Source: Austropuccinia psidii (lineage: Eukaryota; Basidiomycota; Pucciniomycetes; Pucciniales; Sphaerophragmiaceae). Taken from it: DNA of 64,000 nt. Shown piece by piece: positions 57,201-59,607 of the stretch; the first letter of the stretch is position 1; the number at the start of each line of letters is the position of its first letter. The notes beneath the pieces were generated by a model that saw only the letters and a program-made list of their open reading frames with translations, was not told where the DNA came from and searched no databases. The stretch covers positions 57,641,569 through 57,705,568 of the forward strand of contig JALGQZ010000007.1 in assembly GCA_023105745.1 (NCBI GenBank), in the 5' to 3' direction. Position numbers and translations under genes: made by a program.

Positions 57201-59382
57201 TGTCAGATGTTCCAACTTGTGGCAAGTTTGAGTTAACATCCAGTACTTCATAAATTATATCAATATTATTAATTTGTGCATTAATTATATTGATTTCATC
57301 ACTTTCAGAGCTCTCTGACTCTTCTGTCTCTTTTTCAGAGTCAGATTCCTCTTCTTTGTCATTGTGGTTTTCTGTTTCCACAATTTCATTGATCTTTGCT
57401 TTTTTAAGGCAATTATTGGCTAAGTGTCCAATACCTCCACATTTATGGCATTTTCTTTGCTCATTATTGTTGGATGTATTGGGTTTAAAGGATTCTTTTG
57501 ATTTATCTTTCTTGATAAATGGTTTGTTTGGGCTTTTAATGTCCAATCTTTTCCAAGTCCTGCCAATTTTTGTTCTTGTCACTATATCTTCTAGTGCATT
57601 TATATACTCTTCTGTGGAGCATGGTTCTATACACCTGCTTCTTAGGGCATGTTCTAGTTCCCCTCCACATTTTTTAAGTATTTTCATATGCACCATTTTC
57701 TGCGACATTTCTGGGTACAGTGCATTAAGTCTTTCAACTTGTTTTAGGAACCAAGTTAAAGGTTTATCTTTCTCTGGGTCAAAGAAAGAGTTTTCAAATG
57801 CATTTTCTATCTTATACCTCCAGGCATCATTTGCCCACTTGGTGATTATTTCTTGTTTCCACCAAGACCAGGTATTTTTACCATTTGTTTGTCTTATGCC
57901 ATAATACCATCTTTTTGCAGATTTCTCAAACAATGAATGTAATCTTGCAGTGATTAATTCATCTGGTATGGCATAGTCTTCTTGTAACATGTCAATTGTT
58001 TTAATAAATGACATGTGGTCATATTCACCTTCTCCTGTGAATGTTGGCCATTCCTTCAATTGAGGTGCTTCCTTCATTAAGACTTGGTTATTGTCTTGGT
58101 GACTCAAGTCTGTTATGAAAGGATTTGACAATTCCTCTTTTGTTTTAATATGGCTTCTTATATGGGAAAATGGTGTTGATAACTTTGGCATATTTAAATT
58201 AGCCTCATTAATTTTATCCATTTTTTCTGTAATAAGCCTTATTTCACTTTGAATATCATCTTTCAGATGCATTCTTGCTTCATCACTTTTTTCCACATGG
58301 TCCAAAAGTAATTTTTGGTGTGATGAAGTCTTTTCTTCAAACTTTTCTACAGAAATACTTAATTTATTTAATTTTTCTGTAAGATTGTCAATACTCACAT
58401 CATAATTGATTGTCAAAGTCTTGTCTTTGATATCTTTTATGTATTTATACAATTCTTGTTGTCCTTGTATTAATTTTTGAGTATTGTCAATTAAATTTTT
58501 TGGTTTATTATTTTCAACAATAAACTTAATGTTGTCAATTTCTTTCTTGTTTTGTACAACAATTTTTGTTAAAGAAGATAAATTGTTATTTATTTCTTGT
58601 AGTGATAATAAACTGTCTTTAATTTCTTTTAGAGGTAATATACTATTTTTAATTTCTGTTAAAGTATTTACAACATCTTTGGACAAGGTTATTTCTTTGG
58701 GAAATGAGGTTGTCTCATTCTTTGCTCTTCCTTGTCCTTGAGTTCCATCAAGGTTCTGGCCATGTTGAAAACATTGTCCATGGCATCCTTTTGGATTCTT
58801 GGGATTCTGTAGCTTGGGGAATATGGTTTCCTCCAATGCTTTTTCTTGTTCTTCTTCCCTTCTTGGGGAAGTGGGTTGGCTTGAGGCTTGCTGGTAGAAG
58901 CTACTGGGGCTTCTTCCTTGGTTGCCTCCCTCTTTTTGGCATGATAATCCTTGATCTTTTTGATTTGAGGTTTGGATGACAGTGGATTCCATCCATTGGA
59001 GTATTTCACTATCTCCTCCTCTTTGAGGAACTTTTTCAGGATGTGCCAGGAGTTCATCACTCCTTGGTGTATTTGAGGCAGCATTTCCCAGTCTTTGTCC
59101 TTGTACACTGTGCAATACTGCTTGTACTGGCTCATGTAGATGTCTATTTGAGCCCTCTGAATGTGATTTGTACCTGTTTGAGTTACTCATACTTAGTTCC
59201 AATTCAGGCTCAGATATGATGGGCATTTCTGGGACTTGCCTTTGGGATAAGGCACTTCCTTGTGTGGATTCTGTTCCACTGGGGATATTGCCCTTTCTTT
59301 TCCCTTTTGAGGGATCAATTCTACCTCTGAGTCCAGCTCCATCTGATTGGATGGAGTATTGGGAACCTCTTCTAGTAGTCAT
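54163..59382 (-). CDS. gag-pol: Gag-Pol polyprotein (element C2)
   Basis: 1739 codons in one frame. Order: low-complexity Gln/Ser/Pro segment (1-230, overprinted on ORF1 from about codon 5 to 231); coiled coil (about 235-400); capsid-like region from about 440; knuckle CHKCGGIGHLANNC (645-658); protease DTGA (771-774); RT motif A near 1050 and YIDD (1119-1122); RNase H (about 1265-1400); zinc site HECHD...CQTC; integrase Asp 1569, Asp 1631, Glu 1667. The last 14 or so residues are out of frame because of the 54195 deletion. The ATG at 59382 lies inside the ORF1 intron, so only unspliced RNA would start here. No frameshift or stop separates Gag from Pol. Confidence 0.95.
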   Translation of the reverse strand: MTTRRGSQYSIQSDGAGLRGRIDPSKGKRKGNIPSGTESTQGSALSQRQVPEMPIISEPELELSMSNSNRYKSHSEGSNRHLHEPVQAVLHSVQGQRLGNAASNTPRSDELLAHPEKVPQRGGDSEILQWMESTVIQTSNQKDQGLSCQKEGGNQGRSPSSFYQQASSQPTSPRREEEQEKALEETIFPKLQNPKNPKGCHGQCFQHGQNLDGTQGQGRAKNETTSFPKEITLSKDVVNTLTEIKNSILPLKEIKDSLLSLQEINNNLSSLTKIVVQNKKEIDNIKFIVENNKPKNLIDNTQKLIQGQQELYKYIKDIKDKTLTINYDVSIDNLTEKLNKLSISVEKFEEKTSSHQKLLLDHVEKSDEARMHLKDDIQSEIRLITEKMDKINEANLNMPKLSTPFSHIRSHIKTKEELSNPFITDLSHQDNNQVLMKEAPQLKEWPTFTGEGEYDHMSFIKTIDMLQEDYAIPDELITARLHSLFEKSAKRWYYGIRQTNGKNTWSWWKQEIITKWANDAWRYKIENAFENSFFDPEKDKPLTWFLKQVERLNALYPEMSQKMVHMKILKKCGGELEHALRSRCIEPCSTEEYINALEDIVTRTKIGRTWKRLDIKSPNKPFIKKDKSKESFKPNTSNNNEQRKCHKCGGIGHLANNCLKKAKINEIVETENHNDKEEESDSEKETEESESSESDEINIINAQINNIDIIYEVLDVNSNLPQVGTSDTNLTNIQDAKIYRTKPARGMGYTAGKSSISIVMVDNQEGKINLDTGAYCTCVGKSYLKTIVPDWQEKRMPIQGVKFSSASESMKPLGIIDLTLIFPHPSQCVRIKVEFVVMDNCTSNHFILGNDYLSIYGIDISNQKDRYFTIGDNKRQKFGFLNNKKQITVIKNEEKIPEKELFISEQLREAEFNQELTEKMKEKLIDLLFKYKNAFATDKEPLGAIIGHEVDIILNVEKPYPPLLRIPAYPASPRAREALEVHIKELMDLGVLRKVGHNEQVEVTTPVIITWHNGKSRMVGDFRALKTYTIPDRYPIPRIHETLTQLSQAKFITAMDALKGFHQNVLTDNAKKLLRIIVHCGIFEYLRMPFGIKNAPSHYQRMMNTIFPEELSEGWLIIYIDDIIVCSETWDNHLTRLERVLQKIVQVNMKISLKKCHFAYSELKALGHVVSGLSLGIDKNKVAAVLLKPMPQTKKEMQSFLGFAGYYRQHIKDFAKIAKSLYKLCDQQTVYEMTEQRVKAYEELKNSLTNAPFLLMPDWKLPFKLYIDACGEGLGAALHQTQIINDKPVEGPICFISRQIKPTEARYGASQMECLCLVWALEKLHYYLDGTVFDVITDCNAVKSLLNMKTPNRHMLRWQIAIQEYRGNMTIVHKSGNIHKNADGLSRWALANTPDNPAWVPQEEHHIEGICVTDIGTEFFNQVKESYKTDKNFHILSQLLMKDCKDPSLSSKLDEIWKKAYDEGRFHLLDGILYHRTKHTCVMALTDRTLINTILHECHDSVASGHLSEDRTLERVKTCSWWPNWKKDVAEYCQTCDRCQKANRATGKKFGMMIQIQEPKSPWEIVHMDWVTALPPGGDRSYNACLVLVDRYSKTPMFLPCHKDDTAMDTAIMIWNKVISHTGLFQNIISDRDPKFTSALWTNLHNLFGTKLSFSTAYHPQTDGLAERMIQTLEDMIRRFCAYGLEFKDSDGFTHDWCTLIPALELAYKTSIHSSTGKTPAMLEKGWNPDFLMTPSKRT

Positions 59383-59607
59383 AATTAAAGAATAAGAAAA
59401 AATAAAAGTATTTCAGAATAAAATTCTTTTTATGGCAATTTAAAAAGAGGTGCTCACCTTCAGAGTCTTGAATGGTGGGCCCTGGAAAGTCTAATTTCTT
59501 AGCTTTCTTTCTTTTGGTGATAACTGGTGTTGGAGAACTTTGACAAGTTTCTTCCACCAATCTCTCAACAGTAGCTTGGTTGTCTTCTGTTGGGTTATCT
59601 TCAAACA
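58689..59607 (-). CDS. ORF1, spliced and overlapping gag in the +1 frame (element C2)
   Basis: Proposed exons are 59607-59458, 59371-59240 and 59173-58689. Intron 59457-59372 (AAG|GTGAGC...ACTACTAG, 86 nt) contains the Gag ATG. Intron 59239-59174 would be GC-AG (AAAG|GCAAGT...AAACAG, 66 nt, a multiple of 3) and removes TAA and TGA stops. With an A from an upstream exon, the frame is 256 codons including stop. Exon 1 has no ATG in any frame. Residues include a KRKKAKK patch, a Trp-containing helical part (VYKDKDWEMLPQIHQGVMNSW), a KKNKKKHWRK patch and a C-terminal helix. The conservation pattern against A supports real coding. Function is unknown. Confidence 0.6.

What the first reader, a model, noticed from the sequence alone, without database searches (positions are those of the whole stretch)
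58689..59607. An intron containing the Gag-Pol start codon; splicing opens a separate ORF1 in the +1 frame
In C2 the intron 59457-59372 contains the Gag-Pol ATG (59382). Removing it joins an upstream exon, in phase, to the +1 frame, which stays open (with one further 66-nt intron) to 58689. The same holds in A (intron 4699-4785, ATG 4775) and, independently, in family B (intron 23895-23815, ATG 23834, ORF1 to 23060). In all three, phase, frame offset (+1) and ATG position inside the intron agree. Retained intron would give Gag-Pol; spliced RNA would give ORF1. Ty3 elements are not generally described this way, to my knowledge.
Basis: partly seen in the sequence, partly recalled or inferred. 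Interest (0 to 1): 0.9.

Follow-up and report, generated by a model that had tools for sequence, protein, structure and literature searches.

The report
Splicing switch in a rust retrotransposon
A very abundant jumping gene of a rust fungus appears to use RNA splicing as a switch: its unspliced RNA starts the usual capsid-and-enzyme protein, while its spliced RNA loses that start signal and makes a different, overlapping protein of unknown function; rare genomic copies without the introns show that the splicing really happened.

Summary
The host is almost certainly Austropuccinia psidii. The Gag-Pol ATG of C2 (59382) lies in an 86-nt intron; splicing opens ORF1 in the +1 frame. New evidence: (1) whole-genome searches found 4 C-family and 7 family-G places with this intron exactly gone (controls 0; 5,685 C-type places keep the donor). 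Of the 6 read, 4 also lack the next intron: fossils of spliced RNA. (2) The C2 leader has no ATG in 1,468 nt (about 15 expected). (3) In the C-family overlap, differences fall at ORF1 wobble positions; given ORF1, the Gag-Pol frame has too few stops in one copy each of four families. (4) Families E and G, and as far as read F, show the same anatomy. (5) ORF1's coding exon starts AG|TG in phase, and the best leader donor follows an A in all seven leaders scored, so a first splice would make ORF1's AUG (A|UG). That step is inferred: B junction searches found nothing, and four C places could not be read. Function unknown; best guess a regulator of unspliced RNA, like Cer1's CERV. New variant of a known kind.

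The parts
60122..62148 (-). 5' LTR of element C2 (3' LTR 51454-53469, 98.5% identical)
60871..60878 (-). TATAAATA box; transcription start inferred near 60850, where the ATG-free leader begins (last U3 ATG at 60933)
   Evidence: start site inferred
60107..60119 (-). primer-binding-site-like TGGGGGCCTGGCC just inside the 5' LTR
   Evidence: sequence; 17,490 genome matches of the related pattern
59608..60549 (-). predicted intron 1: best-scoring donor TTAAAA|GTAGGT, acceptor TTTTTTAG|TG; would remove the U5 remainder and the PBS and make A|UG (inferred)
   Evidence: not confirmed
59458..59607 (-). ORF1 exon 2, starts TG in ORF1 phase, no ATG
   Evidence: AG|TG seen in 29 of 30 C copies
59372..59457 (-). 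intron 2, 86 nt, holds the Gag-Pol ATG
   Evidence: exactly absent in 4 genomic copies
59380..59382 (-). Gag-Pol start codon, first AUG after the predicted transcription start, 11 nt before the 3' splice site
59240..59371 (-). ORF1 exon 3 (overlaps Gag-Pol in the +1 frame)
59174..59239 (-). intron 3, 66 nt, GC-AG (GT-AG in family G)
   Evidence: exactly absent in L082 and L083
58689..59173 (-). ORF1 exon 4 to stop; strongest dual-coding stretch
54163..59382 (-). Gag-Pol reading frame, 1739 aa (zinc knuckle, RT, RNase H, integrase)
4549..4698 (+). element A, ORF1 exon 2
4699..4785 (+). element A, intron 2 with Gag-Pol ATG at 4775
4918..4983 (+). element A, intron 3 (GC-AG, 66 nt)
24208..25127 (-). 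element B, predicted intron 1 (CTAACA|GTGAGT ... GAATAG|TG)
   Evidence: not confirmed (0 hits)
23896..24207 (-). element B, ORF1 exon 2 (this copy carries a stop; L010 does not)
23815..23895 (-). element B, intron 2 with Gag-Pol ATG at 23834
23060..23814 (-). element B, ORF1 exon 3
63795..64000 (+). start of ORF1 exon 2 of a second B-type element (B') that continues past the window (L069)

Best explanation
A Ty3-type LTR retrotransposon lineage of Austropuccinia psidii makes two exclusive messages from one transcript. SHOWN by sequence and genomic fossils: the leader is kept almost free of ATG, so the first AUG of unspliced RNA is the Gag-Pol start; that AUG lies in a short intron just before its 3' splice site; exact removal of this intron (and, in C and G, of a second one) has happened to RNA that was later reverse transcribed; ORF1, which then becomes readable, is a basic protein of 255-338 codons overlapping the N-terminal part of Gag-Pol in the +1 frame, and both frames are constrained. 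INFERRED: a first, longer intron (about 0.5-1.8 kb) in the leader joins an exon ending in A to an exon beginning with TG, creating ORF1's start codon at the junction, so each protein has a start codon on only one RNA form. INFERRED, less certain: ORF1 is an early regulator that helps unspliced genomic RNA escape splicing or leave the nucleus, the role shown for the spliced CERV protein of the nematode element Cer1.
For: Intron-less places: C junction 4 (3 exact, 1 with two mismatches), G junction 7 (3 exact, 3 with one, 1 with two), reversed controls 0, against 5,685 places keeping the C donor. Of the 6 read, L082, L083, L085, L086 lack both introns exactly, L081 and L084 lack intron 2 only. 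ATG depletion: C2 0 vs 15.5 in dinucleotide shuffles, B' 0 vs 18.3, G 0-1 vs 6.4-14.3, F 1 vs 28.2, E 2-3 vs 13.4-13.7, A 2 vs 15.6, B 3 vs 27.9; other orders of the same letters are not depleted in the same way. 27 C copies hold 0 (16), 1 (10) or 2 (1). Frame tests: A-vs-C fixed differences in exon 4 by Gag-Pol codon position 18/3/5 vs 22/10/52 downstream, Fisher 6e-5; shared C polymorphisms 4/0/1 vs 2/1/35. Synonymous permutation, one copy per family: Gag-Pol frame stops 0 vs 5.9 (P 0.00045, C2), 0 vs 7.0 (P 0.0001, G), 0 vs 7.6 and 1 vs 9.1 (P printed 0.00000 for 20,000 permutations; B, E); third frame at or above expectation. Same anatomy in E and G, and in F as far as read.
Against: No RNA or protein data. 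No intron-less B place at either junction (0 hits). Intron 1 unconfirmed: the four C fossils keep the whole of it, the two G fossils its end; four C places with A joined to exon 2 could not be read and may be decay of the acceptor. Codon-position bias not significant in G (p 0.05-0.07), E copies L071/L073 (p 0.13-0.3) or between families (p 0.06-0.42); too few differences in L071/L074 (3/1/4); C exon 3 shows none (0/3/1, 1/2/3). Exon 2 differences by ORF1 position are mixed: 11/19/34 and 3/4/12, but 32/31/45, 4/1/4 and 2/7/1. C2's leader donors are weak (GTAGGT at best). ORF1 has no Pfam match above a cut-off and a poor model (pLDDT 58), so its role is a guess. L081 and L083 are 98% alike and may share descent. 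For G L076, read from the PBS only, 1 ATG equals the lowest shuffle.
Confidence: 0.82

Rival explanations
1. ORF1 starts at the ATG inside exon 3 (59345 in C2); exon 2 is untranslated and intron 1 may stay in. Splicing of intron 2 alone would make this the first AUG.
For: With intron 2 gone and intron 1 kept, ATG 59345 is the first AUG of C2 (sequence; leader has none). The C fossils keep all of predicted intron 1 and the G fossils its end. 6 of 8 public gene models read for G start at the equivalent ATG and 1 a few codons later.
Against: Exon 2 starts with TG in ORF1 phase in C, B, E, G and by homology F, the best leader donor follows an A in all seven leaders scored, and exon 2 is an open frame whose B and E versions align at the protein level. 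In B and E the first in-frame ATG of exon 3 lies about 25 to 36 codons in (translations). Gene predictors start at any ATG, so the models are weak evidence.
Confidence: 0.2
2. The Gag-Pol reading frame upstream of the ORF1 stop is not translated; Gag-Pol starts further down and the ATG in the intron is incidental.
For: In the C-family overlap, differences fall at Gag-Pol position 1, so the Gag-Pol amino acids there are poorly conserved.
Against: Given ORF1, the Gag-Pol frame has far too few stops in one copy each of four families; the ATG is kept in 30 of 30 B copies and 29 of 30 C copies; about 1.5 kb of leader is kept nearly ATG-free up to this codon.
Confidence: 0.06
3. The intron-less places are random deletions or recombinants and the +1 frame is open by chance.
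For: Spliced C places are rare: 4 against 5,685. No count of random deletions of the same size was made.
Against: In the 6 places read the gaps end exactly at GT-AG (or GC-AG) borders, in two families, and 4 of the 6 show both introns gone; 11 places match the junctions with controls 0; frame tests.
Confidence: 0.02
4. ORF1 has another role: an RNA chaperone or capsid partner, an entry or matrix-like protein, or a suppressor of host silencing, rather than an export regulator.
For: ORF1 is basic (pI 9.3-9.6, 30-39 kDa) and mostly helical in a low-confidence model, which fits many roles.
Against: Expression from a spliced RNA that cannot start Gag-Pol is typical of regulators (general knowledge; Cer1 CERV, passages of PMC10309623), but nothing here tests function.
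Confidence: 0.5

Closest known systems
Cer1 and its CERV protein (C. elegans, Ty3/gypsy-type; PMC10309623, passages seen)
   Same: Ty3-type element; a spliced RNA makes a protein with no homology outside its group, partly in a different frame; unspliced RNA makes Gag-Pol
   Different: CERV exons 1-3 share the gag frame and its C-terminal half lies after pol; here ORF1 lies at the 5' end, does not use the Gag-Pol start codon and overlaps Gag-Pol in the +1 frame. Export function shown for CERV only.
BARE1 and copia (PMC3735527, passages seen)
   Same: A short intron or a spliced sub-genomic RNA changes which protein one element makes
   Different: There splicing keeps the gag start and cuts off pol; here it removes the Gag-Pol start and opens another protein
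Retroviral spliced messages (env; tat/rev of lentiviruses) (recalled)
   Same: The gag start codon can lie in the intron of the spliced message; regulators are made from spliced RNA
   Different: There the second gene lies downstream; here a 65-87 nt intron carries little more than the start codon, and the second protein overlaps Gag-Pol
Ogre/Tat elements of plants (recalled; PMC6431247 passages mention 1-2 extra ORFs)
   Same: Ty3-type with an additional ORF before gag-pol (recalled)
   Different: Ogre ORF1 is a separate upstream ORF and its intron lies within pol (recalled); here the intron carries the Gag-Pol ATG and the frames overlap

Membership tests
Ty3/Gypsy LTR retrotransposon (Metaviridae) | RT, RNase H, then integrase in that order | tested here: met
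   RVT_1 1013-1169, RT_RNaseH 1258-1365, Integrase_H2C2 1487-1544, rve 1561-1660 in C2 Gag-Pol
Ty3/Gypsy LTR retrotransposon (Metaviridae) | LTRs and primer binding site | tested here: met
   (LTRs 98.5% alike); PBS-like TGGGGGCCTGGCC at the LTR border; tRNA match not tested
Ty3/Gypsy LTR retrotransposon (Metaviridae) | Gag with zinc knuckle and aspartic protease | tested here: inconclusive
   zf-CCHC at the cut-off (20.8 bits); no protease family reported for C2 (a D-T-G-A motif is visible, significance recalled)
Cer1/CERV-like spliced regulator | second protein made from a spliced message | tested here: met
   indirect, from DNA: genomic copies lacking the introns exactly; no RNA or protein seen
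Cer1/CERV-like spliced regulator | N-terminal exons share the gag frame; C-terminal half encoded after pol | tested here: not met
   ORF1 ends at 58689, within the first 232 codons of Gag-Pol, in the +1 frame
Cer1/CERV-like spliced regulator | needed for nuclear export of genomic RNA | not testable with these tools
   needs an experiment
Retroviral env-type spliced gene | ORF between pol and 3' LTR coding a membrane glycoprotein | tested here: not met
   ORF1 is at the 5' end and basic, no Pfam match above a cut-off; membrane segments were not tested
Ogre/Tat | separate ORF1 upstream of gag-pol and an intron inside pol | tested here: not met
   ORF1 overlaps Gag-Pol; Gag-Pol of C2 is one unbroken frame of 1739 codons. 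Definition recalled.

The most novel reading that the evidence does not exclude
A strict start-codon switch: unspliced RNA carries only the Gag-Pol AUG (hidden in a 65-87 nt intron), fully spliced RNA carries first an AUG that exists because splicing joined A to UG, and the spliced product is a Rev/CERV-like factor that lets the intron-bearing genomic RNA escape splicing. In C and G, whose best donors lie upstream of the primer binding site, fully spliced RNA could not be reverse transcribed, which would explain why the six fossils read keep intron 1 (whole in C, its end in G). The system would have carried a fungal Ty3 lineage to some 17,000 primer-site copies.
Probability: 0.3. Interest if true: 0.88.

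Novelty: new variant of a known kind. Interest (0 to 1): 0.78.

Why it matters
It brings retrovirus-style use of spliced versus unspliced RNA to a fungal Ty3 lineage with some 17,000 primer-site copies in a gigabase genome, and uses what may be its smallest form: a short intron holding a start codon. It gives a directly testable answer to how such an element divides one transcript between a second protein and Gag-Pol, and explains many 'hypothetical proteins' in the public annotation as pieces of one transposon protein. Processed copies also allow splicing to be read from DNA alone.

Tried and rejected
Rejected: programmed -1 frameshifting from ORF1 into Gag-Pol. C2 has slippery-looking letters before the ORF1 stop, but the ORF1 ends of B, E and G (translations; not tested formally) do not share it. 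Rejected: GT-AG alternatives for intron 3 in C (GTCCCA, 62 nt and others), because L082 and L083 show the GC-AG junction. Tried without result: homology between C/G and B/E ORF1 (hhalign probability 0.2); Pfam on ORF1 (in one search only matches below cut-off); AlphaFold of C2 exon 4 (pLDDT 58; no fold search was made because the model is poor); B intron 1 and intron 2 junctions (0 hits); ORF1 outside A. psidii (8 of 8 hits are A. psidii; all listed hits are, but only 120 of 792 and 120 of 934 are listed); papers on such splicing in fungal Ty3 elements (listings only in part shown; none seen; subscription journals not covered). A first count for G used a wrong start and was redone. The comparison with unspliced copies returned empty lists and is not used. 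The C donor count was spoiled by loose flanks (11 of 30 spurious); (29 of 30) is used instead. One search failed part-way and was redone.
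Full report
WHAT AND WHERE. The window is G000:C7:57641569-57705568 of a 1,015,390,075-base assembly, G+C 34%. All listed protein matches to ORF1 are Austropuccinia psidii MF-1, up to 95% identity, and the published genome is just over 1 Gb with 33.8% G+C (PMC8063080, passages), so the host is almost certainly this myrtle rust. C2 is an LTR element on the minus strand (LTRs 60122-62148 and 51454-53469, 98.5% alike) with a 1739-codon Gag-Pol frame holding a zinc knuckle, RT, RNase H and integrase.

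THE OBSERVATION. The second intron is GC-AG, 59239-59174. Fourteen copies were tried for a full ORF1. Eight are unbroken: C2, A and L053 (255 codons), three of three G copies (286, 281, 286), the B-type L010 (338) and the E copy L071 (333). Four are broken early (L041, window B, L030, L074) and two were not matched by my anchors (L070, B').

FOSSILS OF SPLICING. If such RNA was spliced and sometimes reverse transcribed, intron-less DNA copies should exist. The C-family exon 2-exon 3 junction occurs 4 times (3 exact, 1 with two mismatches; reversed control 0), against 5,685 places that keep the donor (up to 2 mismatches). All four were read: L082 and L083 lack introns 2 and 3 exactly, L081 and L084 lack intron 2 only, and all four keep predicted intron 1. 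L082 reads ORF1 through both junctions for 255 codons; L083 and L084 carry breaks in ORF1. Leaders of the four are 90-98% alike; L081 and L083 (98%) may share descent. The family-G junction occurs 7 times (3 exact, 3 with one and 1 with two mismatches, control 0); 2 of the 7 were read (L085, L086) and both lack the 65-nt and the 63-nt intron exactly, and keep the end of intron 1. The same test for B found nothing at intron 2 or intron 1.

AN ATG-FREE LEADER. From the predicted start (TATAAATA at 60878, start near 60850) to the Gag-Pol ATG, C2 has no ATG in 1,468 nt, while U3 of the same LTR has 29 in 1,298 nt. Dinucleotide shuffles give 15.5; other orders of the same letters are not depleted in the same way. 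In 27 of 30 C copies that my anchors matched, the leader has 0 (16 copies), 1 (10) or 2 (1) ATG against about 20.6 expected from base composition. In 23 of 30 B copies with a readable primer site the count is 0-7 against 18-23 expected; 6 others with a start but no primer site had 1-17, the 17 in a stretch that may not be leader, and one copy had no end anchor. Many of these ATGs sit where a CpG may have decayed (my reading). The first AUG of unspliced RNA is thus Gag-Pol's in C2 and L075; B' was read from its primer site only, also without ATG; other copies hold 1-3.

BOTH FRAMES ARE USED. ORF1 position 3 is Gag-Pol position 1. In exon 4, differences fixed between A and the C copies fall 18/3/5 on Gag-Pol positions 1/2/3, against 22/10/52 in Gag-Pol outside the overlap (Fisher 6e-5); shared polymorphisms within C fall 4/0/1 against 2/1/35. 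B' against L010 (14/0/7 vs 3/2/12, p 0.008) and C2 against L070 (23/8/9 vs 20/7/38, p 0.0009) agree. G copies (9/2/4 vs 29/26/47, p 0.066), E copies L071/L073 (35/35/31, p 0.3) and between-family pairs (p 0.06-0.23) do not reach significance, and C exon 3 shows no bias (0/3/1, 1/2/3). Conversely, when synonymous codons of ORF1 are permuted, the Gag-Pol frame would hold 5.9, 7.0, 7.6 and 9.1 stops in one copy each of C, G, B and E; it holds 0, 0, 0 and 1 (P 0.00045, 0.0001, and 0.00000 printed twice for 20,000 permutations), while the third frame is at or above expectation. C2 exon 3 alone is too short (P 0.24).

THE SAME ANATOMY IN OTHER FAMILIES. A primer-site pattern has 17,490 exact matches in the genome (a few counted twice by its variable gap) and none for the reversed pattern. 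In E and G the ORF1 exon again starts AG|TG in phase, and a 65-68 nt intron carries the Gag-Pol ATG 14-20 nt before its acceptor. F is decayed; its exon start AAG|TGG, a donor and an ATG are seen, and the stretch read ends there. ORF1 is 38% identical between C and G (E 6e-47) and 49% between B and E (E 1e-103), more than the overlapping Gag-Pol frame (31% and 37%); C/G and B/E show no detectable homology.

HOW ORF1 STARTS. Exon 2 holds no ATG in C2. I scored every GT in seven leaders on the four bases after GT only: the best donor is preceded by A each time (C2 TTAAAA|GTAGGT, B CTAACA|GTGAGT, E TTATAA|GTAAGT and CCAAAA|GTGAGT, F ATAAAA|GTAAGT, G CAACAA|GTAAGT and CAGCAA|GTAAGT). The seven are not independent, the weights are my own, and the C2 donor is the weakest. 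Joined to the acceptor AG|TG they give A|UG in ORF1 phase. The B donor is intact in 23 of 30 copies, or in 24 counting one GTAAGT; 5 were not matched. In C and G the donor lies upstream of the primer site, so fully spliced RNA could not be reverse transcribed; this fits the fossils keeping intron 1, but it is inference. The test of an exact A + exon 2 start found 4 places, whose upstream letters I could not read: they are either spliced copies or decayed acceptors. The rival, a start at ATG 59345, remains possible for C and G.

FUNCTION. ORF1 is basic (pI 9.3-9.6, 30-39 kDa), without a Pfam match above cut-off, helical in a poor model. The nearest precedent is CERV of Cer1, made from a spliced RNA and needed for export of unspliced RNA (PMC10309623, passages). 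I take a regulator of this kind as most likely, with low confidence. Public annotation holds many ORF1 pieces: 792 and 934 hits. Of 8 G models read, 7 begin in exon 3 and join it exactly to exon 4, and 1 begins at the Gag-Pol ATG; whether the join comes from predicted splicing or from intron-less DNA I cannot tell.

NOVELTY. Spliced retroelement RNAs are known (Cer1, BARE, copia from passages; retroviruses recalled). I saw no account of a short intron holding the Gag-Pol start in a fungal Ty3 element (searches; term searches inside two A. psidii genome papers and one rust transposon paper). It is a new variant of a known kind.

Noticed in passing
62148/62149: C2 sits inside the LTR of a second B-type element (B', plus strand), whose leader runs past the window end and has no ATG in the 1,198 nt from its primer site to the Gag-Pol ATG.
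   Followed up: yes
46372-62148: Three C-type LTRs (46372-48396, 51454-53469, 60122-62148) share two internal regions; a B-type LTR piece (50767-51453) lies in the first.
   Followed up: no
leaders of B copies, e.g. window 24602, 25208, 25289: Leader ATGs often stand where a CpG (ACGTG, CCGTG) seems to have decayed, so methylation decay may itself poison the AUG-free leader.
   Followed up: partly
59880-59990: A leader block (TACTGTCTTACACGTGG...TTTGAGTGACTCT) is unusually conserved in C and A and recognisable in family G; a possible packaging or regulatory element.
   Followed up: no
   Followed up: partly
G000:C1:3755762-3755982: The primer-site motif occurs three times at a spacing of 102 bases, perhaps a tandem repeat of the primer-site region.
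   Followed up: no
34693-44875: Another Ty3-type element (D) of a different lineage, 92% identical in Pol to L006 and about 29% to C2.
   Followed up: no
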